A DNA stretch of 64,000 nucleotides from Rhizodiscina lignyota (taxonomy: Eukaryota > Ascomycota > Dothideomycetes > Aulographales > Rhizodiscinaceae), in assembly GCA_010015805.1 (NCBI GenBank), contig ML978136.1, positions 248,001 through 312,000 of the forward strand, in the 5' to 3' direction. Positions 9,641-34,158 of the stretch are shown piece by piece; within the stretch, counting starts at the first letter, position 1, and every line of letters begins with the position of its first letter. Position numbers and translations under genes: made by a program. A model generated the notes under the pieces. That model saw nothing but the letters and a program-made list of their open reading frames with translations. It was not told where the DNA came from and did no database searches.

Positions 9641-11290
9641 GGTGGACAGCGTGACAGACGGTGATGTTGGAGGTGGAGTTGGGAGAAGCAGCGACGCTTC
9701 GCCCTACAGACTGGCAGTCACGGGCAGCACTTCTTCCAGATGCTGCCCTTCAACAACGCGAGCCTGAGGGGTAGAGAAGTGGGTATAAGTGCGCCAGGCG
9801 TGACTTTAGCAGTGCACAGCGTGCAGAGTTTGCAGGCGCAAACAGAGCCTTGCCGGCGGCTGGCGACCGCGTGGTGCTGCGCGCAGGAGATGGGGAGTGT
9901 TTCGTTTTCTGCACGTCAGAGGCTCCCAATAGCGACACGCCTTCTCCTGAGCACTCCGCGATTTCCGATCAGTAAGGCTCGGGCGCGAATGCGGCTCCGG
10001 CGCAGATGCAGTTGGGGTCCTGTCTCGACTTGCGGCGGTTGTGTGGGCGCGCAGGAGAGAGGGAAGCGGATAGACGCCGGGGACGAGGGTGGAGGGCCAG
10101 CGCTTCAACCTCGGGCGCACTGCGAGAGGGCGGTGCAATGCCTGGCGGAGAGTTGTATTATAAACACAGTCGAGGGGGTCAGCGGGTGAGGAGTCGGGGG
10201 GAGTAAGAAGTGCAGGTCGCGCGCTGGTGGTTGGTCGGCAGCTCGGGCAAGGGCGCGAAGACGGGCGGCTAATCCAGGGCCACAGAGCGGACGCTTCGCG
10301 ATGCCAGCGGCGCTGCGAGGAGGCGTGCAGCAGAGCGTCGCGTCTTGTCAGGACAATGAGGGCGTTGTTCTCGTCCTCTTTGTTGCAATGTCGAGCGCCG
10401 TCTCGCCGGGCGAGGGTGCGTCTGGCGTGGAGTGGAGACTTGGGTTCCTTGGGCTGCGCTATTTTTGGAGCGTTTCAGAGTCTTGCGCCGAATTGAGGGC
10501 TGGCCGGGCTGCTGATGCCTGTCTGGGCCAAGGCGCGTGTGAGATTCGAGGTCCAGATGGTGAGATGTGAGATCTGGCCGGCGCCGGTGGCGACGTGCTC
10601 CTGTCCTGTATCAGATCTGGGCAGCAGTGGGGAGCAGCATGTATAGAAGGCGAGTACGTAGAAAGAGCAGGTGCCCCAGCCTGATCGCCTCTTTTGTTCT
10701 CGACGAGGAGGCGGTGGTTTCGTTTCACCATTGCTAGGCACATGCACCCAGCGTTACTCAACGTCCGGTCACGAGCGCTGCAATTCTCCGACCTCACTCC
10801 GTCCATATTGCTCCGAGCACCACCACCACCGAGATCCGCTTCGACAACGAGCCCAGCACTGTCAATGGAAGTCCTAGATTTCGTCAGTATTTGATCTTTC
10901 GCACATGTTCTTAATCTCTCCCTTGCGAAGTTGCAAGGGGCCTCACTCGCTCAGCCATGAGGTCAAAGCCTGTACACAGCATCAACTGGTAGGTGAGCTT
11001 GACATTGCGATACCACCATCACGCCCAACTGATGAAGATGATGAACATTATTCATTATGCAAACCTCATCGCCTCAATCTATTCGCTTCCTTGAAAGCCA
11101 CTGTCGTATTTCCTCACTCAATGATACACCACCCAGAAGTGGTGGCTGCGGCACAGCGTCCTCGAGTTTCATATGCAGGGACAGATAGTCCAAGGAGAGG
11201 CCGCCTTGTAGCCTTGAAAATCTCCATTTTAGCCTTCGTTGTGAATGAATCCGTCCGCTTGCTTCTCTCATTTTTGCCAATGTCTACCTA
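9641..11290. promoter_or_regulatory. Long divergent intergenic region between the SH3 gene and the laccase-like gene
   Basis: About 1.65 kb. The left 1.1 kb is GC-rich with CpG-rich runs; the right 0.4 kb is AT-richer and ends in a leader before ATG 11291. A TATTATAAACAC TATA-like stretch is near 10152. Many open frames occur, but none has a domain, a good start or a splice pattern. Confidence 0.5.
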
Positions 11291-13435
11291 ATGGCCCAAT
11301 ATCCAGACTATGAAGGTCTCCAACTCCACCCCGAGGACGACGGACTGCAAGTCTCTCCATCAGACGGCCCTGAACGCGTACCACTGGAAGAGCCAGGGGA
11401 GAATGGCAAAGAAGTTGCGCGCGACGACGAGAAATTGGCCATTGGCACCGACGACCAGAGCCCAAAGTCGACAAAATATTTCCTTGGTCTCCGGCCACAA
11501 TCATTCTGGATCACGTTCATCATCATTCTTGTTGTTATTTGTGCTGCAATCGGTGCAGCTGTTGGAGCAACCTCGAGAGTGCGTCTCATATTACATGTGA
11601 TCATTGCTGCCCTTGCTCACAGCAGTATGCTACAGACACGCAGCAGCAGTGCTCCACTGCCGCCGAAGCCCTCCTCATTGCAGCCCAGGCCTGCTTCTCC
11701 GACATGCACACACGGCCCAGGGACGAGGAACTGCTGGAGCGACGGTTTCGACATCGACACAGACACGTACGAGAAATGGCCCACCACGGGGAAGGTGGTT
11801 CGATACGAGCTTGAGATTACCCAGAAGACAATGCAACCCGACGGTCTTTTAGCAGACATGTTAGTAGTCAACGGTCAGTACCCTGGACCGACAGTATACG
11901 CTGATTGGGGCGATACATTGTCCATCACGGCGACAAACTCCCTCCCGGAGAATGGCACCGGCCTTCACTGGCATGGCATACGACAATTCCACACCAATCA
12001 GATGGATGGCGTGCCAGGTGTTACAGAATGCCCCATTGTTCCGGGTGCCAGCAGGACTTACACATTTGTTGCAACGCAGCATGGCACTTCATGGTATCAC
12101 AGCCATTATTCGACTCAATATGGAGATGGACTTGCCGGGCCCCTTGTCATAAACGGTTTGTCTGGCGGATAGAGAGGTGGGGTGTACTTACCGCTAACGT
12201 TTCAAGGCCCATCAACAGCGGATTATGACATTGACTTGGGCGTCTTGCCAGTCACAGACTGGATCGACGGCGCTCCTCCAGGCCCCATCTACACAGATCC
12301 GGACCATAATCAATGGGCTTTGGACAGGCGCCCTGTCGCCAGTAACTTTTTGATCAATGGCTCCATGCTATGGTGGTTTAATGATACCGTTGGCCAATAC
12401 GCAGTAACGACGCTCACACCGGGAAAGAAACACCTTCTCCGACTTGTAAATACTAGTGCAGCTTCATGGCTGCACGTGTCCCTGGATAGCCACTCTTTCC
12501 TTGTCGTTTCTGCCGACTTTACGCCAGTAAAGCCATTCTCAACCAAATCCTTGTCAATGGCCATTGGCCAGAGGTATAATGTCGTCATTGAAGCAAATCA
12601 AACTACTGGAAGCTACTGGTTTCGTGTCGGGAGCGGCAATGGCGGTTGGGCAGATGTTTGTGATGAAGCCAATATCAATGAAAATCGAACAAAAAGCATC
12701 TTTAGGTACCATGGAGCTCAAGCAGGAGATCCGAAGAGTACTCCAAGCATCCTACCGATAGGCTGCTATGATGAGATGTCGCTCGAGCCGTACGTCAGCG
12801 CGAACGTCCCCCCTTCGCGCCCTTCCACGATAGCTATAGCCTATGTCCCACCAAAGGTACACAACACTTCGAAGGTAGACAGCAATGAGATTCCTGGCCT
12901 ATGGACAATAAACAAGACGGCAATCAAAGTTGACTGGGCAGTCCCCAGCCTGCAACAAATTGCATCGAATGATCTGAGGCCCTTCAGGAACGCATCTCTC
13001 AATACGACCTCGCCAAATGAGTGGGTGTATTGGCATTTCACGAAAACTGGGCCCGCAACCGATGTGGCCCATTCTATGCACCTGCACGGTCACGACATGT
13101 ATATTCTAGGCTCTGGTACGAATTTTGAGCAGGATGCCCATAAGCTTAATTTTACAAACCCCATGCGCCGCGATACAGCCGCAATCCCAGGAGGCGATAC
13201 TGGCTACTTGGTTGTTGCATTTCGCGCGGATAACCCTGGCATATGGCTAATGAACGACCAGAATCTCTTTCTCATGGCTGCGGGGTTGGGCTTTCTGTTC
13301 GTTGACAATTCGAGTGACATCATCGGCACTCTTGGGGATCTCGGTGACCTGAAAGCCGACTGTAAAAACTGGACTGCCTCTGGCCCTGTGTATCCGGGAG
13401 CCAATGCAGCAGTACCACTCGATTCAGGCCTTTGA
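11291..13435 (+). CDS. Laccase-like multicopper oxidase, membrane-anchored, fourth copper motif degenerate
   Basis: Three cupredoxin domains. Exons are 11291-11578, 11636-12155 and 12207-13435, 678 residues. The first intron is 57 bp and in frame, so it could be read through; the second (51 bp) is needed to restore GPLVINGPSTADYD. The N-terminus is a polar cytosolic tail of about 65 residues and then one hydrophobic segment (FWITFIIILVVICAAIGAAV, about 70-90), which makes a type II signal-anchor instead of a cleaved signal. Copper motifs 1-3 are intact: HWHG (H207, H209), WYHSH (H251, H253), HSMHLHGH (H558-H565). Motif 4, normally HCHIAxH after NPGxWLM, reads NDQNLFL (619-625): both type 3 His, the type 1 Cys and the type 1 His are gone while the flanks (FRADNPGIWLM, GLGFLFVD) stay conserved. 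Oxidase activity is therefore doubtful. No alternative frame supplies the motif. Confidence 0.88.
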
Positions 13436-13717: not shown

Positions 13718-14634
13718 TCAGCTCTTCAACGCTCCACCAATCTGTCTCTCTACATCCGTCGCCACCATCACCGACTCCATCTGCTTATCACAATAATCAT
13801 GTTGTTTCCTGAAATAATGGTTCTTCCCATTCACCTCTACCGCGAGCCCATAGCCCTTACCGGCCTCCACCTTCGTCCCATACGCATCGGTCATATCCTT
13901 CCCGTCAACGAGCATCAGCACCGACTCCACAATCTTCTCCACAGGCGTAAAATATTCCTCGGGGAAATTTGCCCAGCCTTGTGCATCTAGCAGGTTCGTG
14001 CGCACGGTGCCAGGGCAGATACAGTTCACTCTAATACCATCGTGCAGGAAGTAGTACTTCGCAATACTACGCATCAAACCAACGACACCAAACTTAGACG
14101 CGGAATACACAGGGCTGAATGGCGAAGGATACAGGCCACCACAACTCGCCGTCTGCACGATGATGGAATCAACGCCTTTCGGGTTCTTCTTCATGTAGTG
14201 GTTCGCAAGGTACGTCTGCCACACCACGCTCGTGAGGTTGACATCCAGCGTCAGCGTGAACGGCGCCGGCGGCGGGTCTTGTTCGTCTGCGGTGTCGTAG
14301 AACGACCTCCTCTCTACGATCCCGGCGTTCGCGAAGACGAAGTCGAGCTGTCCTTCGGCCTTGAAGATCTTGTCGAACGTCTGCGCGAGCGAGTCGTAGT
14401 TTGTGCAGTCGACTTTGTGGAAGTGTGCGTTCTTGCCGATTGATGACTCTGCCTTCGCGCCGGCGTCTGTGTTTAGGTCCAGCAGGTGGATGTGCCAATT
14501 ACCGCGCTTCCCCAAGGCTTGGGCAACGGCGAGTCCCATGCCGCTGGCTGTATAGAGCGTCAGTGGTTACATAATTTGGGGATGTTGAGAGGAGACGGCG
14601 TACCTCCGCCTGTGATGAGTGCTACGGGAGGCAT
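13718..14634 (-). CDS. Short-chain dehydrogenase/reductase (classical SDR)
   Basis: NAD(P)-dependent oxidoreductase of 286 residues in two exons. The first (14604-14634) codes for MPPVALITGG; after a 56-bp intron, 13718-14547 follows. The join gives TGGASGMG, the Rossmann TGxxxGxG loop. Later landmarks are DLNTDAG (an acidic residue after beta-2, which favours NAD over NADP), FANAG, the catalytic Ser in QTASCGG, YSASK with catalytic Tyr and Lys, and CPGTVRTNL. The nearest family is the 15-hydroxyprostaglandin dehydrogenase-like SDRs, which oxidise secondary alcohols. It diverges from the aldehyde dehydrogenase gene across a shared 0.7-kb promoter, so the two may be co-regulated. The substrate is unknown. 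Confidence 0.9.
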
Positions 14635-15333
14635 GATTGCTGAATTGAAGATCTTTCTCACAAATTCTTTACTCTTTGCTTGTGTACGATAAGGACTGAC
14701 GATGGATAAAAGAAGTAACAGACCACGAAGTGAATTGGAAGAAACCGATGAACGATGAGAGATGTACAGCTCTCAGCCATCCTTGGACACCTCCATTATG
14801 GTACCGCCTTTGCCGGTCCTCGTCACAATTCTACTCCCCAACTTACTCGACGCGTTTTCCGGACGCGTCCCACTGGGCATTCAGCTCAAGCTCCAGCGCT
14901 AATGATGATCCTGCGTGACAATGCATGGTGGGCAGTGGAGGGGTCCAGCCGTCGTCCGCGAATGGAAAAGGCGCCTTTGCGGGGTCCGTCTTCCGCAGCA
15001 ACCTCGCCCTTCGCTCACCACGACACTGGAAAAGCAGAGCCGCGACCTCGAAGTTCCACGCCGTCGCCCCGCCTATGCGCACCGTCGTGCGAGTCGTTGA
15101 GCGATGGGTTTGCGGAGATACTCATGTATGTCCGAATCATGTTCTGTGACGTTTCTGCCACGGCGGCCGAGAAAAGTCGGAGAGAAGGGAAGTGACTTTC
15201 GAACTGTTTCGGCTTTACCTCTCTTCAGTCCTTTCCACATTCTAGTTATCCTCAAGAGTTTCCCTGAACACGTTTCTATTCCGAGTGTAACTCTCTTCGT
15301 ACATTCTCTTGACTCTCGACTGCCTCGCCCACA
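14635..15333. promoter_or_regulatory. Divergent promoter between SDR and aldehyde dehydrogenase
   Basis: Holds TTCCGCAGC at 14991-14999, a copy of the TCCGCA motif seen upstream of other metabolic genes here, and a CT-rich leader before ATG 15334. No gene seen. Confidence 0.5.
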
Positions 15334-16923
15334 ATGGCGTTCAGCTTCTCAAAGTCCAACCTCCCCAAGCAGCTGTTCATCAACAACGAATTCGTCGCCT
15401 CGAAGCATGACAAGAAGCTGAAGCTTTACAATCCCGCTGATGGCTCTCTCGTCGCCGATGACGTCGCCCTTGCTGGCGAGCAGGACGTCGATGCCGCAGT
15501 CGCAGCGGCGGAGAAGGCCTTCCCAGCTTGGAGAGCTATAAGCTCCGGCGAACGACGCTCCATTATGAACAAGTTCGCACAACTGATTGAGGACAACACA
15601 GTTGCATTGTCGGAGCTCACGAGAATCACTCTTGGCGCTCCGTACGTGAGCTTCGGCAAGTTCGAGGCGGGCCTGGCCGCAGAGGCGAGTAAAGTGGAAT
15701 TGTTTAAAGGAGCAAGAAGCTAATACAGGAGCACACAGGCATTCAGATACAATGCCGGCTGGATCGACAAGTTCGGCGGCGAGTCCTGGCCCCAAGAAGA
15801 CGGCTTCATGAAAATCGTGCGCAACGAGCCCCTCGGCGTCACCGCAGGCATCGTGCCCTGGAACGGTCCTCTCGGCACCATCGGCCTCAAGGCTGGCCCG
15901 GCTCTCGCAACTGGCAACTGCTTCATCCTCAAGCCGTCCGAGAAGACGCCATTCGCCTCCCTCGCGCTCGGCCCGCTGATCAAGGAGGCTGGCTTCCCAC
16001 CGGGCGTCTTCCAGGTGCTTAGCGGCGATGGCACAACCGGAGCGTTGCTCGCGAGCCATATGAGGGTTCGCAAGGTCAGCTTCACGGGCTCGATCGCGAC
16101 GGGAAAGAAGATCCAGGAGATGGCGGCGAAGAGCAACCTCAAGCGCGTGACGCTCGAGCTGGGCGGGAAGAGTCCCGCGGTCGTGTTCGACGACTGCAAC
16201 CTCGACAACGCGGTGACGTGGACGGCGAATGCGATCACCGCGAATACGGGACAGGTGTGCTTTGCCGCGAGCAGAGTGTACGTGCAAGAGGGGATCTACG
16301 ACAAGTTCATTGAGGGGTACAAGAAGGCGATGGAGGACAAGAAGAAGGATATCGGGGATCCGGGCAAGGCAGAGACGCTGATTGGACCTCTGGTCGACGA
16401 GGCACAGTTCAAGCGCGTCTCTGGATTTATTGAGCGAGGTCAGAATGGCCAGGGCAAGTTGCTCACGGGTGGACAGAGGATCGGGGACAAGGTAGGCTGC
16501 ATGACACCATCTCTCCACTTTCGTCCTGCTTGAGTCAAAATATTGATACTCGACTCACAGGGCTTCTTCATCGAACCCACCGTCTTCACCGACGTCGACC
16601 CCACCTCGGAAATCCACACGCAAGAGATCTTCGGCCCCGTCTCCGTCGTCCGCTCGTTTAAGACGGAGGAGGAGATCATGGAGTTGTCGAACAACACCAA
16701 CTTTGGCCTGATGGCCGGCGTCTTCACGCAGGACATCAACAAGGCGATGCGCGTCGCGAGCAACTTCGACAGCGGCATGGTCGGCATCAACTGCGTGAGC
16801 TTGATGTTCATGATGACTCCGTTCGGCGGCAGCAAGGAGAGTGGGCTGGGACGGGAGTGCGGCATTGCGGCGCTGAGGGCGTACACGGATCCGAAGACTA
16901 TTATGGTGAATTTGACGTATTAG
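15334..16923 (+). CDS. NAD(P)-dependent aldehyde dehydrogenase
   Basis: Oxidises an aldehyde to its acid; 488 residues, the usual length. Exons are 15334-15684, 15739-16491 and 16561-16923. Landmarks are PWNGP, KPSEKTPF, FTGSIATGKKI for cofactor binding, the general base E257 in LELGGKSP, the nucleophile C291 in GQVCFAASR, and EIFGPVSVV. The first intron ends in CACAG and must join GLAAE to AFRYNAGW. No in-frame GT donor gives a family-like join, whereas a GC donor (GCGAGT at 15685) gives it exactly. A weak GTGGAA donor two codons further on would add Ser-Lys. The second intron is a standard GTAGGC...ACAG. The protein has no targeting peptide, so it is probably cytosolic. It lies head to head with the SDR. 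Confidence 0.93.
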
Positions 16924-17038
16924 GTACTGGAGTTGTAGCTTTTGAATTTGCAATTCAAATAGCATTGGAATGAGAATATATAGCATCTAGGAGCCATTTC
17001 GAGGAGTCTATTCTCGTGTGTATTCCCATTCTACTTCT

Positions 17039-18330
17039 TCAATGTGCAGGAGGAATCAACTTCCCCTGCCTCATCCGATCGAACACCACGCCCCACGCCT
17101 CCATCACACTCCTCTCCTCCTCAAATCCCGTGCTGTACGTCTTCGTCATGTCGTACTGTCTGTCGAAATCGAACTGCGTAAGCAAGAAATACTCGAAGCC
17201 CTTGAACGTCAGATCGCTGTCCGCAACGCCCTTCTTCAGCCCATACTTGCTCTCCAGCTTGTACCAGGTGTCGACGTGATCGCTGATGTATTTCCGCACT
17301 TCGATTGGATCACCTTGCTTCGGGGGAGGCGTGCCCTCGAGACCAAAGTATGCACATAGTTGCGGCCATTTGGAGGACCAGGTCTCGGGTTGCTTTGCGT
17401 CGGCGACGTTGAAGCCTTCGCCTTTGTGTGCAGGCGCGAGAGTTAGCGAGAGGTGGATTGTTTGGCGGGCGATCATGTCGGAGGAGGAGTCGTTTGACTT
17501 GTTGACCCACGATTTTGCCGTGCCCTGAGAATTGTTCAGTGTATATCCCAAGAAGATGCATCAGTCAGCCGTACCGGAAACGGGCATTGTGCTCCCTTGC
17601 CCTCGACTGCTCGATACAGTGCTAAGAATATTCCAAGCACCGTCCCAAGGGAATAGAAATTTTGGTTCGGGACGAATCCGATGATGATGTCTGGCCGTGT
17701 GTCGCACCAGTTCCACTTCTTGTCCTTTGCATACTCCGTAACCCAGTCCAACTGCGGATGGTAGAACAGCAGGTCGTGATATGGTTGCTTCAGGCGAGGG
17801 AAGCTCTCCTTCAACGGCACATGGATATAATCCGTAGGATGGTCCTCTAGCAGATGACAACCATACATCTTCGCGCCAGTCTGCAGCACCACGAATTCCA
17901 ATGCCGGGCTAAGATGGTCCATGGCTATCGTCGAGCGCCTGAACATGTCCACGGCATCCAGCAACTCGGCGTGGAGATCCTTCTGCGCTTTGTACGCGAG
18001 ATAGTAGACATGCGTGACTTTCTCCACTTCTTCAACTTTGGATTTGATTTCAGCCTCCAGCTCTTCCTGTGTGCCTTTAAGCAAGTCTATTCCAGAGACG
18101 ATGTTGAGACGAGGGTCGGTCGGCCATAGCGAGTCTTCTTGCTTTAGTGGCCGATTCGTGAGAGCGTGCACTTTGGTCCAGATGCCCTTCTTCGGGTAGT
18201 CGTTTAGCATTTCGTTCACAAAAGACCATCCTGATGTGACTCAGCGTCCTGGTTTAACAACTTGAACGGATGGAATGTTACCGGACACGCCAGACGCGCC
18301 GAAGATCAGTGCAGCCTTCCCGCCACCCAT
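17039..18330 (-). CDS. PRISE-type enone reductase (progesterone 5-beta-reductase/iridoid-synthase-like SDR), copy 1
   Basis: Extended SDR of the PRISE group, which reduces the C=C bond of 1,4-enones with NADPH. Exons are 18282-18330, 17575-18230 and 17039-17524, 396 residues. The first join gives the cofactor loop FGASGVSGW. The two catalytic residues known from plant enzymes are present: Lys in TGAKMYG (K137) and Tyr in LLFYHPQLDW (Y173). Then come RPDIIIGFVP and, at the C-terminal end, FDFDRQYDMTKT, typical of fungal members. A paralogue lies at 21918-23253 with the same domain order and a different intron pattern. The stop is only about 115 bp from the stop of the convergent aldehyde dehydrogenase gene. 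Confidence 0.9.
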
Positions 18331-18972
18331 TCTGGTTATCGTGGAATAACCTTTATAGACACGTCTAGAAAAAAGAGAGAGAGAACCAATTGATCAGAAA
18401 ATGAAGGGAATTGAAGAAAGTTCGGATACGCGTCAACGACTTGGAACGCTTCAATTACGGAGCAGGCGCGTCTCTGACCTGCGGAGAAGCCACGCACACT
18501 TCCGCAAGGCACGCGCATCGGGGTCATGTTGATCGATCCGTGATGCCGTCACTTACCTTAGCTTCCGCATGTACAATGGGTACGTCCTGGAGTAAGATGC
18601 GGGTTTGCTCTGCCGTTCACGAGATGGAGAGATGGATGGAGCCCCGAGCTGCCCCCACATCACATGGGGGATGTCCTTATCCGTCATTGTGACGAGTCAG
18701 GATAACATCTCCTTTGAAGGAGCATGAATCATTAGAAGGATGGGATCCATAGTTATGAAAGAGTGAGGAACATCGCAGTCTGAGACTTTCAGAGCTGACC
18801 ACCAAGAATTCCATTATCGATTTGCACAAGCTTTGGTAGATTCGAAGGCCTAGGGAATCGTATGCATTCAGGGGTCTAAAACCAGGTCGCTTAATCAACG
18901 TCTTGAGCGTTATGAAAATTGCATGCCTAAGGTATAGGCCTTGTAACACAGCATCATACAATCAGATGCACC
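18331..18972. promoter_or_regulatory. Promoter of PRISE copy 1 and 3' flank of the acyl-CoA dehydrogenase
   Basis: An inverted pair TGCGGA (18480-18485) and TCCGCA (18501-18506) lies 150-176 bp upstream of ATG 18330. The rest is featureless. Confidence 0.45.
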
Positions 18973-20365
18973 TCAAAATGTCTCAAACTCAATTCCCCAC
19001 TTCTCGCATAGCTCCTTTCTTCTAGTTTCGTACCCGTCAAACCTTGCCTTGAACGCCGGGGCAGTCTTCAGTTGATCTCTTCCAACCTGATGTCTATGCG
19101 CAGCATCCGGCCCATCAGCGACTCTGACAAATCTTGCATATGTCCACATCTCTGGCAGTACCGTATGCTGCGTCAGTCCTTGTCCTCCATACATTTGCAT
19201 GCATTCGTCGATGATTCTAACCGCCATGTTCGGAATCAGAATCTTGCTCTGAGCAATGGCATATTTCCCAGCCTTGTTGCCCTGCGTGTCCATCACATCT
19301 GCAGCGTTAAGAACCACCAGCCTCATGGCATCAAGCTCGAGCCGCATTTGGGCTAGACGCTCAATGTTGCTGTCGAACTCGCCGATCAGCTTACCGCGTG
19401 GCTTCTTGCGGGGATCGATGGCGCGGATGAGAGCCAGCTCGTACGCACGCTCCGTTTGGCCTATCAAACGCATACAGTGGTGGATTCGGCCAGGGCCGAG
19501 ACGACCTTGTGCGATTTCGAACGCACGCCCGGGTCCAAGGATGATATTCTCAACGGGGACGCGTACATTCTCATAGACGTACTCGCCATGGCCTTCGGGG
19601 GCATGATCGTAGCCCATGATGGTGAGGTTGCGCTTCATCTTCAAACCGGGAGTTTTAGACGGGACAATCAGTGTAGTGTGCCTTCTCCAGCGGTTTGGGT
19701 TCGTGGGGTCGGAGCAGCCCATCAGTATGTAGATGCCCATTTCATCGTTCCATTGTGCATTGCCGTAGAGTTTTCGGCCGTTGATAACGACAGTATCGCC
19801 TTCTATCTTCATGCTGATGCCGATTTGGGTAGCGTCTGAAGAGGCAACATCGGGCTCAGTCATTGAATATGCGGACGCCATGGAACCCTCCATGAGAGGC
19901 TTTAACCATTTCTCTTTCTGTTCCGGAGTGCAGTATTTTGCAAGCAGCTCAATGTTGCCTGTTTCGGGGGCGTGGCAATTCATAGTCTATGAAGTTGTGA
20001 GCTTCAGCAGTCGCATCCAAGTTAAGAGAGCATACTTGTGCTGCCCAATAACACCGTCCCATTATCTCTGCACAACATGAATACTCCAAGTTCGTAAGAC
20101 CAGGGCTTTCTTCGAAGTGATCTGGCAAGAAGAGGTTGAAAAGACCCGCAGATTTCGCCTTCTTCCTCAGTTCATGCATAACTGCCGGCGTCTTCCAATG
20201 GTCTTTGGCAACTTGTGCCTTGTACACGGCTTCTGCTGGTATACATTCTGTCTCAATCCAGTCATAGACTTTTTGAATGATATCGATTGCCTGCGGTCTC
20301 AATTTCGCTTTCACCCAAGAGGGGATGCGATTGAATGCTGGGTTGTCTTCCATTGAGACGGTCAT
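18973..20365 (-). CDS. Acyl-CoA dehydrogenase, ACAD10/ACAD11-like
   Basis: FAD enzyme of 447 residues in two exons, 20036-20365 and 18973-19986, joined as WAAQ-TMNCHAPETGN. N-terminal helical domain (PSWVKAKLRPQAIDI, then FNLFLPDHFEE), beta domain with AYSMTEPDVASSDATQI, and C-terminal helical domain with GRAFEIAQGRLGPGRIHHCM and MYGGQGLTQHTVLPEMWTYAR. The ending RVADGPDAAHRHQVGRDQLK is the ACAD10/11 signature. In animals this domain is fused behind an APH kinase domain; here the kinase is a separate gene at 23832. Animal ACAD10/11 handle 4-hydroxyacyl-CoA, phosphorylated by the kinase part. No peroxisomal SKL is seen; the protein ends in FETF. Confidence 0.92.
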
Positions 20366-20739
20366 TATGGTAGTTGAAACGATTGGAGAAGAGGGGCGAT
20401 TCAGAGGTGCAGTAAGAAAACTGAAAATATTCCTTACAATTTTGAGATGAAGTCAAATTCTCTAGGAGCTCGGCATTTACCACGACAGCCGCACAAAGGT
20501 CTAGCCAGACGCGCACCACATGTCCGAGGTGGAGGTCGTGTTGGAGACGCGGCGCGGCGGCGGGGAGCGCGACTGGGGAAGATGATTTCCGGCGCTGGCC
20601 TCCGTGCTAACAATTACACAGTACCAAACGTCGTACAGAGCCCTCCACTCTTCGGCCAAGGCTAGGAACGTCATGGCAGTCGTATATGTGTCCTGTGGGT
20701 GCATGGTCGACCGCATTCGTCAGTTTGAAGCCATTGAAA
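20366..20739. promoter_or_regulatory. Divergent promoter between acyl-CoA dehydrogenase and alpha/beta hydrolase
   Basis: 374 bp shared by two genes. A GC-rich core (GGCGCGGCGGCGGGG, around 20550) sits within AT-richer flanks. The TCCGCA motif is absent; nearest look-alikes are TCCGAGG and TCCGTG. Confidence 0.5.
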
Positions 20740-21807
20740 ATGGGTGACGAAGTTTTTGCGCAGCCATGGCTGGAGGTTGGTTCCGTATGAATCTCTTCTC
20801 ACGAACAAATTACTGACGTGTGAGAAGTTTGAAAAGGAGCTAGGATTCCGTCCTCTCCTTCATGGTCCTCTCGACAATGTCTTTGCAGGATGGGAGAAGC
20901 TCGGCGGAGCGCTCGTGTCCAAGTTCGAGTTCCCAGCCCCTGACGATTCGATACAAACCGAAGATCGGACAATAGATGATGGCCTCAAAGTACGGATCTA
21001 CACACCAAAGGACCACTCTGGAAATAAGCCTTTCTGCTTCTATACTCATGGAGGAGGATATGCTATGGGAGACTTAAATATGGACGATGGTGGATGCCGT
21101 GTCCTGGCGAGTGCAGGCATAATTGTCGTATCTATCGACTACCGCCTCGCACCGCAGCATAAGTTTCCAGTTGCTTTGGATGACTCTATGACCGGCCTGC
21201 ACTGGGCGTTTAAGAATGCCCAAAGCCTTGGTGCTTCACCGGAGAAGGCTATCATCGCAGGAGCGTCAGCAGGTGGTCAACTGGCGCTGGGTGTTGCTCT
21301 ACGGCTGATCGACGAAGGGAAAGGCGATCTGTTAGCCGGAGTCATCGCACAAGTACCGATCACCCTACACCCGGATGCTGTGCCTGAATCTTTGAAAGCC
21401 AAGTTTACTAGCTACGATGAACATGCGGAGCATACTGTCAACACCAAGAACGCGATGGCGGCCTTCAACGGTGCATACGACCCACCACCAACGCATAAGT
21501 ACTTTTCGGTGTTGTTGCACGACAAGATAGACGAGATGCCGAAGACATATATTACGTGTGCCGGTGCGGACACGCTGAGAGATGATGCTCGGGCGTTTAG
21601 AGATGCACTGAAACAGAAAGGGTGAGCCAAAGCTACAAATTTGTGTTTAAATTTCATTTTGCTAACGGGTTTAGTGTCCCATACAAGTACGACGAATATC
21701 CGGGCTACCCTCATTACTTCTGGACATTCCCTGCCCAATCATTAAAGGCACCAGCAGCCGAGTACAATAAGAATTTAGTAGATGCGGTGAAGTGGATACT
21801 TTCATGA
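20740..21807 (+). CDS. Alpha/beta hydrolase of the hormone-sensitive-lipase family (esterase or lactonase)
   Basis: Three exons, 20740-20775, 20825-21621 and 21675-21807, give 321 residues. The short first exon (MGDEVFAQPWLE) uses a GTTGGT donor and joins to KFEKELGFRPLLHGPL; without it the frame has no ATG. The oxyanion loop HGGG is at 87-90. The nucleophile is S160 in GASAGG (the HSL family usually has GDSAGG), the acid D261 in CAGADTLRDD, and the base H291 in YPGYPHYFW, so the triad is complete. These enzymes cleave carboxyl esters and sometimes lactones. It sits inside the ACAD/APH cluster, divergent from the dehydrogenase and tail to tail (110 bp) with PRISE copy 2. A role in opening a lactone or ester substrate fits the context but is inference. 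Confidence 0.9.
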
Positions 21808-21917
21808 TACTCCGTAGATTACGAACTATGAATGAACTTTCGAAACGAGCCTTGATCATTACTCGAAATTTGACTAAACAATGCAATGCACACAGACGCC
21901 CACCTTGCATACCTCAT

Positions 21918-23253
21918 TTATGGAATAATCTTCGCTTTCCGAAATCTATCAAATGCAGTATACCACGTCTGTTTCGTATCCCATTCTTCCGCCTTTTCTC
22001 CCCATGTCTTCAGCGTCTTGGTCATATCCATCTGGCGATCGAAATTCAACATGGTCATAATGAAATATGGAAATCCGCCGAAGCTCCTCTCATTGCCCAC
22101 TCTCCCTGCCTGTAACCCGTGCTTCTTCTCCAATTCTCTCCACTCTGATAAATGCTCTGCCACATACTGCGGAGGCTGCGGTCCACTGCCTCCTGCCGGC
22201 GGGGGTGTACCCTTGAGCTCGAAATACTCGCAGATCGTAGGCCACTTGGTCGACCATGAGGTCGGCTTGGATGAATCGCACGTGTTGAAGGCCTCGCCGT
22301 TGCCACAGGTTTCAGGATGGAGAGATACATAGATACTGAAGCGTGCAATAAGATCCTGGCCGCTGTCGTTGGAGAGGTTCGTCCACGATATCTCTGTACC
22401 AGGGAAGGGGACCTCAGCACCGGCGCCATTAATCGTACGGTAAAGGGTGAGGTATAGAGCAAGGTGTTGGGCGAGGCAGTAGATGTTATTGTTCGGGACA
22501 AAGCCGACGATCATATCCGGTCTGCCATTTTGACGTCAATATAGCCTGAGAGGTTAAAAAGATGATAGGCGAGGAGGGTAGCATACCGCACTTCACACCA
22601 AGTCCAGGACTTGCCCTTCGATAGAGAGTCTAGCATGTCACACTGATTGTAGTAAAACATCTCAGATGCGTATGGTTCTGGTATGCGGGGAAGAGATTCT
22701 TTGACCGGTAACTCATTCGGCCATGGAAATTTGTCCAGGAGATGGACACCGTATGCCTTCGTTCCTGTAGGAAGCACGACGAACTTGAGCTTTGTTGAAA
22801 GGCTGTCAATTGACTCAACTGCTCGCTTCAGCAGATCAACGTTGATATCAATCTCTTTCTGAAAGAGAATTAGCCTTTAACGCGACGCGTTTTGGAAATA
22901 TATATACTTGTGGTTCAGGATCCATGATATATGCTGTTTACTGTCAGACAAGTTTCCTACTCCAGCTGGGCCAAGCTAGTCTCACCAAAGAAATAAACAT
23001 GAGATACAGTGTCGACATCTTTAATGCGTTTCTTCATGTCCTCCTGGACCCCGTCTTTACCCAGATCGATCCCACTGACAACCTGTAGCTTTTCGCTCTT
23101 CGGCCAAATCGCTGCATCTGCACTCAATGGCCGATTCGTGAGCGCCGTAACTTTGTCGAATGCTCCAGCATCTGGATATCCTTCCAATATGGCGTTGACA
23201 ATGGCCCAGCCAGTAATACCGCTGGCACCGTAGATGAGCGCGTGATTCCCCAT
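21918..23253 (-). CDS. PRISE-type enone reductase, copy 2
   Basis: Four exons, 22986-23253, 22908-22933 (a 26-nt micro-exon), 22587-22858 and 21918-22521, give 389 residues. The start MGNHALIYGASGITGW holds the cofactor loop. Catalytic Lys is in PTGTKAYG and catalytic Tyr in MFYYNQCDML; RPDMIVGFVPNNN and LNFDRQMDMTKT match copy 1. The first and fourth exons are unambiguous; the micro-exon (AYIMDPEPQ) is supported by clean GTGAGA/ACAG and GTATAT/TCAG signals and by family length. It is clearly homologous to copy 1 but well diverged, so the two probably handle different enones or steps. It shares a 578-bp promoter with the APH kinase gene. Confidence 0.88.
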
Positions 23254-23831
23254 TCTGACAACTGTTGATGATGCAAGAAAGTACAGAAAATATAAAGAAG
23301 AGATTGACAAAGCAGATTGAATTGAAAAAACCAAGGGAAATATTTTATCCCCTTGTGCCTGATCACAAGAGCAAAGCGCGTCTCGTCGCGCCCGTCCTGG
23401 AGAAGCCCCTCCGCAGCAGCGGAGCTTGCCCCACAGTACCTACCTCCATGGCTGCTTGCGTTGCATGAGGCCTGAATCGCTTGTCATCATGGCGACTCTG
23501 TTTGGGCCTAATGATTCTGTCAGAGCTTCCTTAGGCGTTGGTGCTGTGGTAGGTGACGGTTAACGAAACCCGGCCCGACCCTGAAGGCGAGTCTCGGGGA
23601 GAGGCCAAAGGCTTGTCCCAATTCGGTAATAACCACCACCTCGGCACACGGTGAAGCTTGAGCAATCTGAGTCTTGAGCGGAAAAGAGCCGGCCTGGATC
23701 GAATAGTGTTGCCAGCTGGAAATGAACTGGAATGATGTATTGACCGATAAGTTGTATATACTCATAAGCGTCTGAAACCGATCGTTGGGACAAGACGAGC
23801 AGCTGTCCACGATCAGTAAACCCCGCTCACG
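23254..23831. promoter_or_regulatory. Divergent promoter between PRISE copy 2 and APH kinase
   Basis: Contains a perfect 6-bp inverted repeat, CTCCGC-AGCA-GCGGAG (23409-23424), which is also CCG-N6-CGG, a spacing style used by Zn2Cys6 regulators. It is 156-171 bp from the PRISE ATG. Confidence 0.5.
23409..23424. promoter_or_regulatory. Palindrome CTCCGCAGCAGCGGAG, possible regulator site
   Basis: A perfect 6-bp inverted repeat with a 4-bp spacer, seen directly. That a Zn2Cys6 factor binds it is inference. Confidence 0.35.
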
Positions 23832-25062
23832 ATGGCTGGGCCAGTTCGACAGGCAATTGATATCCCTTCGTTGGAGCGATACATCGACAGGACCGTACCA
23901 GAGATAAACACACCAATACAACTGAAGCAGGCAAGTATTTCAATGGCTCTTCGTACCGCACCTAAGACTGACTACTATCCAGTTCGGTTATGGCCAATCG
24001 AACCCGACTTACCAGATCATATCAAGCTCAGGCAAGAAATATGTCATGAGAAAGAAGCCGCCTGGCAAGCTCCTGTCAAAGACGGCACACAAAGTCGAGC
24101 GCGAATACCGAATCCTCCACGCTCTAGACCAAACCGACGTACCTCACCCACATGTATACTGCCTCTGCGAAGATGACTCGGTGGTCGGCTCGGCGTTCTA
24201 TATAATGGAGTTTCTTGATGGTCGTATATTTGAGGAGCCGCATATACCTGAAGTGAGCGCAGAAGAGCGGCGCGAGATGTGGCATGATGCCATTCGGACA
24301 CTGGCAAAACTGCACAGACTGAACCCGAAGAGCATTGGACTCGAGACATTTGGAAGGCCCACAGGATTCTACAATCGGCAAATCAAAACGTTCAAGGGTC
24401 TAAACGAAATCCAAGCCGCGACCGTAGACGTGGAGTCGAAACAAAAAGTTGGCCCGGTCCCACACAATGACGAGATTTTGGCCTTCTTCGAGAACCCAGA
24501 ATACCAGCCGAAAGATCGAGGCGCGCCAATTCATGGAGACTACAAGATCGACAACCTGGTCTTTCACAAGACGGAGCCGCGCGTTATTGGCATATTAGAG
24601 TAAGATATATCCTGAAATTAGTCAGTGATATGGGTTGCTGACTGATTGAACAGCTGGGAGATGTCTACCATCGGTCATCCGCTCTCAGACCTGTCGAATC
24701 TTCTCGTCCCCTATACGCTCACATCTCACGTCCCCGAGTCCGACGTAGAGGCCCGTAGAAACGCACGAGCCGCTTTCAGACCCACGAAATTGTTAGCTGG
24801 TCTGCCAACTCCGGACGAATGTATTCAATGGTATGCTGAAGTTGCCGGATGGAATCCTGCAGCAGAGTTTCCGTGGGGTGCTGCATTCAGCATGTACAGA
24901 GATTGCATCATCTTCCAAGGCATTGCAGCAAGATATGCAGTCAGGCAGGCGAGCAGTCCGAAGGCATATCAAGTCGGTCAGGAGATGGAACCATGTGCAA
25001 AGGTGTGTTGGGAGTTGGTAAAAGAGGCAGAGAAAGCAAAGCGATCGACAGCGAGGTTGTAA
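23832..25062 (+). CDS. APH-fold phosphotransferase, ACAD10/11 kinase-domain-like
   Basis: Three exons, 23832-23930, 23983-24599 and 24654-25062, give 374 residues. The first intron is GC-AG (GCAAGT...TCCAG), the only join that gives [16 protein letters not shown], which is the family glycine loop. Next come [13 protein letters not shown] with the ATP-anchoring Lys, [11 protein letters not shown], and [12 protein letters not shown]. The catalytic loop is [12 protein letters not shown] and the metal-binding Asp is in [16 protein letters not shown]. This is the class found N-terminal to the dehydrogenase in animal ACAD10/ACAD11 and, as a free protein (LvaA), in the bacterial levulinate operon, where it phosphorylates 4-hydroxyacyl-CoA. 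Its partner dehydrogenase is two genes away. The substrate here is inferred. Confidence 0.92.
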
Positions 25063-25782: not shown

Positions 25783-27865
25783 TCAGTCATCTGTGAGATC
25801 TATCACCTCAACACCGGCACTCGGGGCTGTTGTTTTGGGAGCGGTAACCGGACTGCTCCAATTTATTGTAGTATTCGGCAGATGAAGCTTGGACGGCGTC
25901 GCTTGAATGACTTTTGATACGTTTCCAGACATTGGAGTGAGTGGTGTGGCCAAACCTCCAAACTTTGCTATGCCATAATCGAAAGGAGGGATGCCTTGAG
26001 TGGTTCCGACCTTCGGTATAAGAGTTCGATTGCGACCTAAGAGAGTTGAGAGCTCAGGAAGATCTCCCTCGTCGTCATCATCATCATCGCCACCAGTACC
26101 GGACCAATTACTGTACGAAGAGGCCTTCCTCGGTAGTAAATCTGGAGGTCCATTTGTAAAGGAGACAGCTACCCTCTCTTCCAGTAAGACAATTGTTGAT
26201 GGGCGGTCAAGAGAAGGTTTGGTGCGATCCAAAGCTTGGCGTGAACGATCCGCAGTCGACTTGGGATTCTTCTGCGACGTGGCTTTACGCTCACCACTGG
26301 GGTCTTCCGCGCTTTTGGCGACGTAATATCCTGCAGCACTGGTGAAGTCTTCCTCTTCTTCCCACGATTGGAAGCTGGCTGTTCTAATGCGTTGAATTGT
26401 TCGTCGAATGCAGCTTGACCAATACCGCGTATGACCACAGAGCGCAATGTCTCACACTCAATCCGCTCGCAAGCTTCGCGATCCTCATCAGGCATCTCGA
26501 ACGGGTTAATGTCTTGGATAACGGCGAAGGGATTGAAAGAGATCGTAATCTCGTTTGAGATGTCCTGCGCTGCAATGTCACCTTGTTCCTTCCTCTTCCT
26601 CTTTTTCAGAAGTTGAACCTCACAGCAAGCATTGTTATGCTCTTCTCCCGGCTGCGTTGAACCAAGTTTCATGACAAGCAAGAATGGTGCAATCTTGAGA
26701 AGATAGCGCTTCGTTGCGAAGTCGAAATGGTCGGCCATGATTTGTCGTAATTTGGTATGGTCAACTGCCTTCCCCCAAGTCTTACGAGTTCGTAAGGCTT
26801 CGATCTGTTCTGCTGAGGAGACTGTTGGAGCCTTGTAATGTTTCAGAGCAAGCCACTTGGGGAAAGTTGGAGGTACAAAGACTGAGCTCCTAAGCTCTCT
26901 CAAAGTCTCAGTCAATTGCAATCTGACGTCATCTAGCTCCCTCTCGCTGCGCGTTTCGCGAAGCACTCGACCGAGGCCTGGAGCTTTTCGAGTCACAGCA
27001 AGCGCTGTCTTGGGTCCGCATTTAGGCAATCCAGCAGTGTCGTAGTCCCCTCCGGCCAGAATCACAAAGCAAAGCAGCGAATCCTGGTCGAGGCCGTGCT
27101 TCCTTGTGATCTCTTCCATGCGATAGACTCGAACCAGCTTTTCATCTTTTTTTGCCTGTTTATTTTTCCCCTCCCGGTAGTCTGTGATCAGCATAGTAGC
27201 TCCAAACATCAGAGTATCACTGTCATCGCTCCATACAGCGTCGACAATGCCAGCCTGCTGCATCCGAGCACACTCCGCTTCGGCTTCTCCAGGAGCATTA
27301 TGATGAGGTATCCGCATAGTATCGAGGAGCTTCACGAGCATTCTTAGACGGTCGTAGTCGACGCGATTGCCACCACGGCGGCCACGTTTCCAAGGACGAT
27401 GGGGGCCATCGAAGACAAAAATGGGGTGGACATTGTAACATAGGAGTCGGATGAGGCGCCAGAAGATATTCTTCTCGATTGGATTAGCAGCCTCATTCGT
27501 TTGCCCGATATGCGTGGCAGATTGTTCTATTCCAAGCTTCTCATCAGCATTGTTTCACGTATGGAGTATTGAAGAGGAGAGAACGTAACATACTTGCTCG
27601 AATCGCAGCAACTTGAGCATCGCTGAAATTCGTCAGAACAGAAGCTTAGAACTGGGGATGTAAACGCTACTTTAAGTTGTTGAATCGCCATCCAGCCTCA
27701 TCAATTGCAACCCGGAGAGGCCTGCCAGTACGCTGGAAGTGGTCTGAGGAGAGTTTCGGCAAGGAAACTTCTTCACCGTCTCCAAGCGTCTCGAAGATGC
27801 TATCATTGTTGTTAGATGCCATCAATTGAGCTATTGTGATTCGTGACCTACTAATTGATCCCCAT
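25783..27865 (-). CDS. XPG/Rad2-family Holliday-junction resolvase, Yen1/GEN1-like
   Basis: Structure-specific nuclease. Exons: 27852-27865 (MGINY), 27671-27799, 27594-27622, 26295-27526, and a last exon ending at 25783. The N-domain has LRVAIDEAGWRFNN and FVFDGPHRPWKRG; the I-domain has APGEAEAECARMQ and SDDSDTLMFG with metal-binding acids; GGDYDTAGLPKCGPKTA is the GEN1-type H2TH entry. A chromatin/tail region follows. Near 26260-26295 the frame must change: a GTGAGC donor at 26294 pairs with AG at 26260 (35-nt intron, very short) or at 26176 (119 nt); a frameshift is the third option. The protein is about 598-626 residues and ends EVIDLTDD, a classic SUMO-interacting motif. Yeast Yen1 also has C-terminal SIMs. 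Nuclear and cell-cycle regulated by family analogy. Confidence 0.88.
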
Positions 27866-32700: not shown

Positions 32701-34158
32701 GGGTGCGTGCTGCTCGAGCACGCTTTTGGACACCATTTGATTCGCTCTCTATTAGGTTGACATCTTTGAGCGGAGCGGAATACTGGAAGTGAAGATAGTC
32801 CTGAACGTCTTGAACCTCTTCCATATTCCCGACGTGGGATAGCATCTCTTCGATCATAGGGTCTTCAACATTTGCGATAGCTTGCAGGCTCTTGTAGGTC
32901 TTCTGCAATGCGTCTCGCTTTTCGGCCATGGCTCTAAATTTGAGATCGTGCTCGAACAAATCCCACATATCGCTCTGGTTAAGCAGACGCTCTGCTTTCA
33001 ATTCCGTGTCCGAGGCATCTGGTCGAGAGGGGTCTGGCGAGACTTGGAGGGGGGTAGCGTGGATGAGATAGTCCTTCCGATGCTGGAATATGAATGGGAT
33101 CTCGTAGTCGTCTTCATTGATGAATTGGAGAACTTTGGCCACCGAGCGCTTGAAAGGCTCTATCAGTTGACGATCGAGCCGTTTCTTCGGGAGCATCATT
33201 GACGCGACCCATTGCGCCTCTTCTTCTTTCCGCTTCGCAGCCTCCTCCTCTGACAGCTCAACCCGCGAGAACGGCTTCCGGGCAATCTGGAAGCGCTCAG
33301 GCACATCTACCCGTCGTATCTCCTCATCTTCCGCTGTGAGCATCTTGTCGATGAGCTGCGACGGCTCAAAGACGTCTTTCAGCTGGATCTCCGCCTCCCG
33401 CTCTGGCTCATCCATCTCAGCCTGTACCTGAAGAGCCCAGTCATACTCTGTGCCGTCACCGAAAGCAGCTTTCATATCCTCGAACTCGGCTTCCGAGAAA
33501 CCCTCTGGGGGTTGGCCGCCGGAGGCAAAGAACTTCCTGCCAGGTCTAGCGACTTCCCGCTCCTCCAGCATACGCTCGCGCTCCTCGTCGGGGAACTCAT
33601 CTTCCTCGATGAAGTCGTCAAACTCATCAACAAGTCCTCTGGCTTCTCTGCCCGGTGCTTCATCGTCATCGTCAGAGAAGATATCGTCAACGCCTCGTTC
33701 CTCGCGGGCTGTGCGGTCTTCACGGTGGCCTTGCTTGAGGCGCTTGAACCTGGGCTGCTCATCGCGCAACTCATCTCTGTCCAGCTCTCCGATGAGTTCG
33801 AGATCCTCTTCGCTCAGCCGCTCATCTTGTTCCTCCCTCTCAGCTCGCCTGCGTTTGCGTTTTTCGCGACGTCGTCGGGCTCGATCATCGTCTTCTTCTT
33901 CGTCATCGACAATGAAACCTTCGCGGACCTGATAGCAAAGTCAGCTACTAGGCAACATGTGCCACCATTGTTAAACCTTACCGCGCGAGCAGCCTCCTCA
34001 TCGTCATCCTCATCTTCCTCTTCACTAGAGTCGTCTACTCCGTTCGCACCTTTTCTTCTCTCCTTCCGCCTCAAAGGCTCGCCTGTCTCCTCGTCAAGTT
34101 CTTCGTCTTCGGACTCGGAGCCTACATCGGCGACTCTGTCGATAAAGGCATCCGCCAT
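29747..34158 (-). CDS. SPT6: Transcription elongation factor Spt6
   Basis: Histone chaperone that travels with RNA polymerase II. Exons are 33982-34158, 30073-33928 and 29747-30015, 1433 residues, the normal size. The N-terminal 130 residues are strongly acidic and disordered (DDSSEEEDEDDDEE), where histones and Spn1/Iws1 bind in yeast. Then come the helix-turn-helix core (DPRAYTDDP...PEYTTGAQIL), the YqgF-like domain (RCITLSSG...ICWVYVE; VIGVSGFSVETRKL), the HhH pair ([21 protein letters not shown] region), an S1 domain (VQVRRVFSDHIEVRLDCGLEG) and the tandem SH2 (HPLFRPFNAAQAEEYL, GDVVIRPSS with the phosphate-binding Arg). The 57-bp last intron has no stop and is in frame, but AQT-DQWLTTY across the join is family sequence, so it is spliced. 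Confidence 0.96.

What the first reader, a model, noticed from the sequence alone, without database searches (positions are those of the whole stretch)
13718..25062. Split ACAD11-like kinase and dehydrogenase inside a seven-gene metabolic cluster
The APH-fold kinase (23832-25062) and the acyl-CoA dehydrogenase (18973-20365) match the two fused domains of animal ACAD10/ACAD11, but here are separate genes two loci apart, interleaved with a hydrolase and a PRISE reductase and flanked by a second PRISE reductase, an ALDH and an SDR. Seven genes in 11 kb with three shared divergent promoters look co-regulated. In animals, kinase plus dehydrogenase convert 4-hydroxyacyl-CoA by phosphorylation and elimination; bacteria do the same for levulinate (Lva operon). 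A fungal pathway for hydroxy acids, lactones or enones, using PRISE enzymes for C=C reduction, would be new as far as I know.
Basis: partly seen in the sequence, partly recalled or inferred. Interest (0 to 1): 0.75.

Follow-up and report, generated by a model that had tools for sequence, protein, structure and literature searches.

The report
Fungal split ACAD11-like kinase–dehydrogenase gene pair
A fungal chromosome carries, as two nearby genes, the kinase and the dehydrogenase that animals fuse into one enzyme for burning 4-hydroxy fatty acids, set among enone reductases and other enzymes; the pair is real but unusually diverged, and what it feeds on is not yet known.

Summary
Seven intact spliced genes lie at 13718-25062: SDR, ALDH, PRISE1, ACAD, HSL-type hydrolase, PRISE2, APH kinase, in three divergent pairs. 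ACAD and kinase fall in the ACAD10/11-type clades and keep every ACAD11 catalytic and phosphate-binding residue that I could map. [quoted passage not shown] 'Split' is the usual bacterial state (kinase in the held flanks of 54 of 80 bacterial ACAD loci), and a fungal ACAD11 homologue is already needed on ricinoleate (PMC5922974, passages). Unusual are the company (PRISE in 0 of 80 bacterial ACAD loci, ACAD10/11-type ACAD in 0 of 40 bacterial PRISE regions) and the divergence (ACAD departs from 23 of 125 near-invariant columns, human ACAD11 from 7 of 126). Seven-gene co-regulation is not supported: the promoter signal fails one control, and codon usage splits SDR/ALDH/PRISE1 from ACAD/HSL/PRISE2/kinase. 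No fungal genome could be searched, so conservation of the cluster is untested.

The parts
13718..14634 (-). SDR (adh_short), 286 aa, exons 14634-14604 and 14547-13718; YSASK motif; best solved matches are 15-hydroxyprostaglandin dehydrogenases
15334..16923 (+). ALDH, 488 aa, exons 15334-15684, 15739-16491, 16561-16923; ALDH1/ALDH2-like, catalytic Cys291 and Glu257 motifs present; intron 1 GC-AG
17039..18330 (-). PRISE1 (PF22917 enone reductase), 396 aa, exons 18330-18282, 18230-17575, 17524-17039; Lys137 and Tyr173 kept
18973..20365 (-). ACAD10/11-LvaC-type acyl-CoA dehydrogenase, 447 aa, exons 20365-20036 and 19986-18973; R272, R277, H280, R283, D401 kept
20740..21807 (+). HSL-type alpha/beta hydrolase (Abhydrolase_3), 321 aa, exons 20740-20775, 20825-21621, 21675-21807; HGGG and GASAG motifs; best solved match vibralactone cyclase
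21918..23253 (-). PRISE2 (PF22917), 389 aa, exons 23253-22986, 22933-22908, 22858-22587, 22521-21918; Lys132 and Tyr167 kept; 46% identical to PRISE1 with no shared intron position
23832..25062 (+). ACAD10/11-type APH-fold kinase, 374 aa, exons 23832-23930, 23983-24599, 24654-25062; R73, R165, D219, N224, D239 kept; C-terminal ARL (peroxisomal-signal-like); intron 1 GC-AG
14635..15333 (.). divergent intergenic region SDR|ALDH
20366..20739 (.). divergent intergenic region ACAD|HSL
23254..23831 (.). divergent intergenic region PRISE2|APH

Best explanation
The kinase (23832-25062) and the ACAD (18973-20365) are a bacterial-type, two-gene version of the ACAD10/11 reaction. The kinase puts a phosphate on the 4-hydroxyl of a 4-hydroxyacyl-CoA; the flavoenzyme then eliminates the phosphate and yields a 2-enoyl-CoA that enters beta-oxidation. 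The best-supported unit is four genes, ACAD-HSL-PRISE2-APH (18973-25062). The hydrolase would open an ester or lactone, and PRISE2 (with PRISE1) would reduce the C=C of an enone or enal upstream. ALDH and SDR, which may be a neighbouring module, would oxidise an aldehyde and interconvert hydroxyl and ketone. The overall role would be catabolism or detoxification of an oxidised lipid, lactone or plant-derived enone whose breakdown runs into a 4-hydroxyacyl-CoA. Shown here: gene models, family membership, kept catalytic residues, gene order. Inferred from the known families: the two-step chemistry. Conjecture: the substrate, the order of steps outside the pair, and joint regulation.
For: Kinase groups with mouse ACAD11, 3dxp and the closer bacterial kinases (17 of 29 used after thinning) at 100/100, against the other bacterial APH group. 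ACAD lies in the ACAD10/11-LvaC clade at 100/100 (99 in the quick tree). ACAD11's R626, R631, H634, R637, D753 (PMC12440821 section 7, read) correspond to window R272, R277, H280, R283, D401, all kept. Kinase D220/N225/R176 and the alpha-C Arg correspond to D219/N224/R165/R73, all kept. In bacteria this ACAD is linked to that kinase family above the local background (0.894 per 10 kb near, 0.087 far). Both proteins show like acceleration (end branches 2.23 and 1.81, medians 0.44 and 0.36), as partners sharing a changed substrate would. Both PRISE keep catalytic Lys/Tyr. The kinase ends in ARL, a peroxisome-type signal (consensus recalled), and mammalian ACAD11 is peroxisomal (PMC12440821 abstract). 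A fungal ACAD11 homologue is required on ricinoleic acid (PMC5922974 passages; that ricinoleate beta-oxidation passes through 4-hydroxydecanoyl-CoA is recalled). GC3 is homogeneous over the four-gene core (p 0.53).
Against: The ACAD departs from 23 of 125 near-invariant columns (bacteria mean 2, max 10; human ACAD11 7 of 126), and the KWWS-type motif reads KLYG and the AFGK-type motif PRGK (nearness to FAD recalled). It may therefore have a changed reaction or substrate. The kinase too keeps only 47 of 65 near-invariant columns of its closer bacterial group (31 of 35 over all 54). No CoA ligase is among the seven genes, although 30 of 80 bacterial loci have a ligase-like frame within 4 kb (named by me from its sequence). 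Only the kinase has a peroxisomal-type C-terminus, so the pair may not share a compartment. No co-regulation evidence survives both controls. The seven-gene set is split by GC3.
Confidence: 0.6

Rival explanations
1. The pair is a neofunctionalised derivative: it still uses phosphorylation and flavin-assisted elimination, but on a particular natural product, as part of a small specialised-metabolite cluster, made or degraded, with PRISE as scaffold-tailoring enone reductase and the hydrolase as lactonase or cyclase.
For: Long branches of both partners; 23 departures in the ACAD; the hydrolase's best solved match is vibralactone cyclase (2.2e-37); a VEP1/PRISE gene was predicted to be part of the sirodesmin cluster of a fungus (PMC3144213 passages); one of the two 'phenylalanine clamp' positions is not Phe in either PRISE, the state said to favour larger lipophilic enones (PMC8778713 and PMC11643720 passages).
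Against: No polyketide, peptide or terpene synthase among the 17 frames that I scanned by Pfam, and none that I recognised by eye in the long open frames listed; no transporter or regulator recognised at 13.7-25.1 kb; the phosphoacyl-binding residues are kept.
Confidence: 0.25
2. Chance neighbourhood: a real ACAD/kinase pair (or two unrelated housekeeping genes) that merely lies among common oxidoreductase genes; PRISE, ALDH, SDR and hydrolase have no shared pathway with it.
For: GC3 block difference (p 6e-23); no robust shared promoter motif; FarA/B-type site not enriched; PRISE and ACAD10/11-type genes are not linked in the bacterial samples.
Against: Kinase and ACAD two genes apart in a fungus, where genes are mostly not in operons (recalled), together with two anciently diverged PRISE (46% identical, no shared intron position) within 11 kb; the four-gene core has one codon usage, though this is also that of most other frames measured in the window. 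The genome-wide frequency of these families could not be measured.
Confidence: 0.15

Closest known systems
Animal ACAD10/ACAD11 (PMC12440821; PMC11342911)
   Same: Same two enzyme families; all mapped catalytic and phosphate-binding residues kept; kinase of the same clade.
   Different: Two genes here, one fused gene there (ACAD10 protein is cleaved into two after synthesis, PMC11342911 discussion); the ACAD is 38-40% identical to mouse/human ACAD11 and much more diverged than they are from the bacterial rows.
Pseudomonas putida lva operon (LvaA kinase, LvaC ACAD, LvaD 4-keto reduction, LvaE CoA activation; roles from PMC9399607 passages) and the wider bacterial ACAD-kinase-SDR loci
   Same: Separate kinase and ACAD genes close together; an SDR nearby (SDR within 2.5 kb in 34 of 80 bacterial loci).
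   Different: No CoA ligase among the seven; LvaB was not looked for; the SDR here scores higher with 15-PGDH (96 bits) than with any SDR frame of the 80 bacterial loci (at most 73 bits); two PRISE, ALDH and hydrolase are extra. The lva genes themselves were not compared here.
Rhodosporidium toruloides ACAD11-like genes RTO4_14567 and RTO4_10408 (PMC5922974 passages)
   Same: Fungal ACAD11 relatives, one of them required for growth on a hydroxy fatty acid.
Plant and fungal PRISE/VEP1 1,4-enone reductases (PMC8778713, PMC11643720, PMC3144213 passages)
   Same: PF22917 over the whole model, catalytic Lys and Tyr.
   Different: Distant from the solved plant enzymes (best E 2.5e-19 and 1.7e-20); lack one clamp Phe; here beside an ACAD/kinase pair.

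Membership tests
ACAD10/11-LvaC acyl-CoA dehydrogenase | Phylogenetic placement with ACAD11 and LvaC-like bacterial rows rather than ordinary ACADs | tested here: met
   100/100 branch, (31 of 80 bacterial rows, 3 PDB, 7 outgroup); 99 (12 outgroup). Window on a long branch; its position inside the clade is unresolved. LvaC itself was not in the trees.
ACAD10/11-LvaC acyl-CoA dehydrogenase | Phosphate-binding R626, H634, R637 and catalytic Asp D753 | tested here: met
   R272, H280, R283, D401; R, H and D identical in 80 of 80 bacterial rows and all 3 PDB rows, R283 in 78 of 80 (2 Lys) and all 3
ACAD10/11-LvaC acyl-CoA dehydrogenase | General conservation of the family core | tested here: inconclusive
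   102 of 125 near-invariant columns kept; human ACAD11 119 of 126, mouse 118 of 126
[quoted passage not shown]
   needs enzyme assay
ACAD10/11-type kinase | Clade membership among APH-fold kinases | tested here: met
   100/100 with mouse ACAD11, 3dxp and 17 closer bacterial rows, against 21 other bacterial rows
ACAD10/11-type kinase | Catalytic Asp, metal Asn, metal Asp, CoA-contact Arg residues | tested here: met
   D219, N224, D239, R165, R73, each identical in 54 of 54 bacterial rows. The published R86 is taken as the Arg next to the alpha-C Glu; its number did not match my count exactly.
Fused ACAD11 | Kinase and ACAD in one polypeptide | tested here: not met
   separate genes on opposite strands with two genes between
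lva-type levulinate operon | CoA ligase and 4-keto reductase with kinase and ACAD | tested here: not met
   no CoA ligase among the seven genes; SDR present but nearer to 15-PGDH
PRISE 1,4-enone reductase | PF22917 domain over its length with catalytic Lys and Tyr | tested here: met
   558 and 585 bits over the whole model; K137/Y173 and K132/Y167, (which columns are catalytic: numbering recalled; Tyr and Lys as the pair from PMC11643720 passages)
Co-regulated fungal metabolic cluster | Shared regulatory sites or co-expression | tested here: inconclusive
   (7 of 500 shuffles, but 79 of 500 random quadruples); expression not testable
Co-regulated fungal metabolic cluster | Conserved gene order in relatives | not testable with these tools
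   no fungal genome held; scans of viral contigs with ACAD and PRISE2, which reach close relatives only, gave none

The most novel reading that the evidence does not exclude
A dedicated fungal pathway in which PRISE enone reductases feed a diverged, two-gene phospho-elimination pair: an unsaturated oxidised lipid or lactone (for example a fungal or plant 8-, 10- or 12-oxygenated fatty acid, or a butenolide) is opened by the hydrolase, its enone C=C reduced by PRISE, its carbonyl set by SDR/ALDH, and the resulting 4-hydroxyacyl-CoA cleared by kinase plus ACAD, possibly in peroxisomes. It would couple oxylipin or plant-defence electrophile removal to beta-oxidation. The even-position arithmetic (8-, 10- or 12-OH reaching 4-OH by C2 steps) is my own; [quoted passage not shown]
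Probability: 0.2. Interest if true: 0.7.

Novelty: new variant of a known kind. Interest (0 to 1): 0.42.

Why it matters
If it works as proposed, fungi have a bacterial-style, separable version of the mammalian 4-hydroxy acid route, extended by enone reductases. That would offer an easily dissected model for ACAD10/11 chemistry, a catabolic step for hydroxylated fatty acids and gamma-lactones (relevant to lactone flavour production), and a hint that fungi clear oxidised lipids or plant electrophiles through beta-oxidation. The divergence of both partners makes it a test of how far phospho-elimination can be re-aimed at new substrates.

Tried and rejected
Promoter motif: GCGCGTCT-like sites upstream of PRISE1, ACAD and PRISE2 looked promising (4 shared 8-mers, reached in 3 of 200 shuffles; 7 of 500), but random quadruples from elsewhere in the window reach 4 in 79 of 500, and the six pairwise promoter alignments are at shuffle level (21 to 100 of 100 shuffles reach the score). 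Not counted as evidence. FarA/B site CCTCGG: 2 seen, 1.33 expected; rejected. 'Bacterial operon moved whole into a fungus': not supported; PRISE, ALDH and HSL are in 0, 2 and 1 of the 80 bacterial ACAD loci, the SDR is nearer to another type, and all seven genes have introns. Recent tandem duplication of PRISE: rejected (46% identity, no shared intron position). Fungal relatives in viral contigs: none (single-sequence queries, close relatives only). Bacterial PRISE-ACAD linkage: of 40 regions read, one had an ACAD10/11-type kinase about 3 kb off with unrelated genes between (L152), one an ordinary ACAD at 37 bits (L131); ALDH in 4, SDR in 8, HSL in 1; not taken as linkage. Bacterial neighbour clusters were named from their sequences, not by Pfam. 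Paper searches for a fungal 4-hydroxyacyl-CoA route and for PRISE in fungi or with acyl-CoA dehydrogenase clusters showed no report of such a cluster in the rows listed (6 to 20 rows each; some lists were cut, and one search was too broad to be informative); the library holds only open-licence papers. Structure prediction was not run: the family question was already settled by sequence.
Full report
WHAT IS THERE. Splicing the window by consensus sites and homology gives seven intact proteins: SDR 286 aa, ALDH 488, PRISE1 396, ACAD 447, HSL-type hydrolase 321, PRISE2 389, kinase 374. Pfam assigns each strongly. The order is SDR(-) ALDH(+) PRISE1(-) ACAD(-) HSL(+) PRISE2(-) APH(+), with divergent gaps of 699, 374 and 578 bp. 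On the left lies a multicopper oxidase (11249-13435), on the right an XPG-type nuclease frame (26169-27554) and SPT6 (29747-33940). First introns of ALDH and kinase are GC-AG; using them restores the conserved joints (for example [13 protein letters not shown] in the kinase). The second kinase intron lies inside the metal-binding Asp codon, so the raw open frame looks as if that Asp were lost; spliced, it is D239.

FAMILY OF THE PAIR. The kinase matches bacterial 3dxp (1.1e-63) and mouse ACAD11 (4.6e-52). The ACAD matches 4hr3 (3e-101) and human ACAD11 (1.1e-89), then falls to 1e-26 for the next ACADs. In the trees, after thinning to 31 of 80 ACADs and 38 of 54 kinases, the window ACAD is in the ACAD10/11-LvaC clade at 100/100 (from which I dropped 5 of the 12 outgroup rows of the quick tree, where the branch has 99). 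The kinase is with mouse ACAD11, 3dxp and the closer bacterial group at 100/100. Both are on very long end branches (2.23 and 1.81 against medians 0.44 and 0.36), and the program warns that such rows are hard to place.

ACTIVE SITES. Mouse ACAD11 uses R626, H634 and R637 to hold the 4-phosphate, R631 to orient the substrate, and D753 as base; the kinase uses D220, N225, R86 and R176 (PMC12440821, section 7 read; part of this is from modelling). By alignment these are R272, H280, R283, R277 and D401 in the window ACAD and D219, N224, R73 and R165 in the kinase. All are kept. The ACAD however departs from 23 of 125 columns that are at least 95% one residue in the other 83 rows. Human ACAD11 departs from 7 of 126, mouse from 8 of 126, bacteria from 2 on average and 10 at most (bacterial rows are pre-selected and related, so the animal rows are the fair comparison). 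The KWWS-type motif reads KLYG and the AFGK-type motif PRGK; these lie near FAD in ACADs (recalled). Mean identity to the bacterial rows is 45% for the window and 56.5% for human ACAD11. So this is a derived relative, not a plain fungal copy of ACAD11. Against the 29 closer bacterial kinases the window kinase keeps 47 of 65 near-invariant columns; against all 54 it keeps 31 of 35.

HOW IT MOST LIKELY WORKS. In mammals and Pseudomonas the kinase makes 4-phosphoacyl-CoA and the ACAD makes 2-enoyl-CoA; in ACAD10/11 this needs redox-active FAD but gives no net oxidation (PMC11342911 discussion part 1 and passages; PMC12440821 section 7 read). With the residues kept, the same two steps are the most likely chemistry here (inferred). 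The kinase's ARL end suggests peroxisomes (no other of the seven has such an end). HSL could open a lactone or ester, PRISE could reduce an enone, and ALDH and SDR could set oxidation states (inferred from families). At the first clamp position (plant F153) neither PRISE has Phe (Leu in PRISE2; His or Leu in PRISE1, depending on a gap), while the second (F343) is kept (the alignments are distant, E 2.5e-19 and 1.7e-20). Plant PRISEs lacking the clamp disfavour small molecules such as methyl vinyl ketone and favour larger lipophilic ones (PMC8778713, PMC11643720 passages). A lipid-sized enone is therefore favoured over small electrophiles, weakly.

IS 'SPLIT' UNUSUAL? No. In 80 bacterial loci the kinase is in the held flank in 54, within 2.5 kb in 43, same strand in 40; no open frame matches both; SDR is within 2.5 kb in 34. 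Per 10 kb, near against far from the ACAD: kinase 0.894 and 0.087, SDR 0.971 and 0.162, ALDH 0.019 and 0.012. Many flanks are short, so misses are partly unseen. Ligase-like frames within 4 kb occur in 30 of 80 (named by me from sequence). PRISE is in 0 of 80, ALDH in 2, HSL in 1. In the reverse direction PRISE occurs above cut-off in 3 of 24, 43 of 289 and 5 of 199 bacterial genomes. Of the PRISE places so found I read 40, at 6.6 to 19.9 kb each: none holds an ACAD10/11-type ACAD, and one holds the kinase type 3 kb away, with unrelated genes between. So the PRISE link is not a common bacterial one, as far as these samples go.

ONE CLUSTER OR TWO? Third-position GC is 0.70, 0.81 and 0.68 for SDR, ALDH and PRISE1, and 0.57, 0.52, 0.56 and 0.56 for ACAD, HSL, PRISE2 and kinase. 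The latter four are homogeneous (p 0.53); the first three are not (p 2e-5) but all lie above ten other frames of the window (0.51-0.65, raw frames); the blocks differ at p 6e-23. If GC3 follows expression (recalled), the first three are expressed differently over evolutionary time. Promoter tests do not rescue joint control. I therefore trust the four-gene core ACAD-HSL-PRISE2-APH more than the seven-gene unit; that its GC3 is also that of the window's background weakens this as positive evidence for the core.

WHAT IS KNOWN. ACAD10/11 chemistry and the lva operon are published (above; lva roles from PMC9399607 passages; the original lva paper was not held). A fungal ACAD11-like gene is already tied to hydroxy fatty acid use: in Rhodosporidium toruloides the RTO4_14567 deletion mutant failed to grow on ricinoleic acid, and RTO4_10408 falls in the same fitness cluster (PMC5922974, passages). 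A Fusarium sacchari ACAD survey names ACAD10 and ACAD11 groups; its main text has no occurrence of 'kinase' (PMC11817166, passages). Fungal VEP1/PRISE genes, and one predicted in the sirodesmin cluster, are known (PMC3144213, passages). The search listings that I saw hold no report of PRISE with this pair, within an open-licence library. Hence: new variant of a known kind.

LIMITS. No fungal genome, transcript or expression data were available. Everything on substrate and regulation is inference. The rate of chance clustering in this genome is unknown.

Noticed in passing
window 11249-13435 +: Multicopper oxidase (laccase-like) directly left of the SDR; may or may not belong with the cluster.
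   Followed up: partly
window 15685-15738 and 23931-23982: Two GC-AG introns in genes of the same locus (ALDH intron 1, kinase intron 1); the kinase's second intron splits the codon of its metal-binding Asp, so raw frames hide it.
   Followed up: yes
window 13718-18330 against 18973-25062: Sharp difference in third-position GC between SDR/ALDH/PRISE1 and ACAD/HSL/PRISE2/kinase (0.74 and 0.55 pooled).
   Followed up: yes
window 41699-43360 +: CoA-transferase family III frame, about 17 kb from the cluster, beyond SPT6.
   Followed up: no
window 50157-50957 -: SMP-30/gluconolactonase-like frame, near an MFS transporter (48028-49542) and glutamate-cysteine ligase (52027-53697).
   Followed up: no
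L152 3508-10553: Bacterial locus with an enoyl-CoA hydratase-like frame, an SDR, an ACAD10/11-type kinase and, after unrelated genes, a PRISE; no ACAD match in the 20 kb read (the first two named by me from sequence).
   Followed up: partly
L126 and L145 (genome G081), L135, L132: Some bacterial genomes hold two PRISE genes, in L135 as adjacent genes.
   Followed up: no
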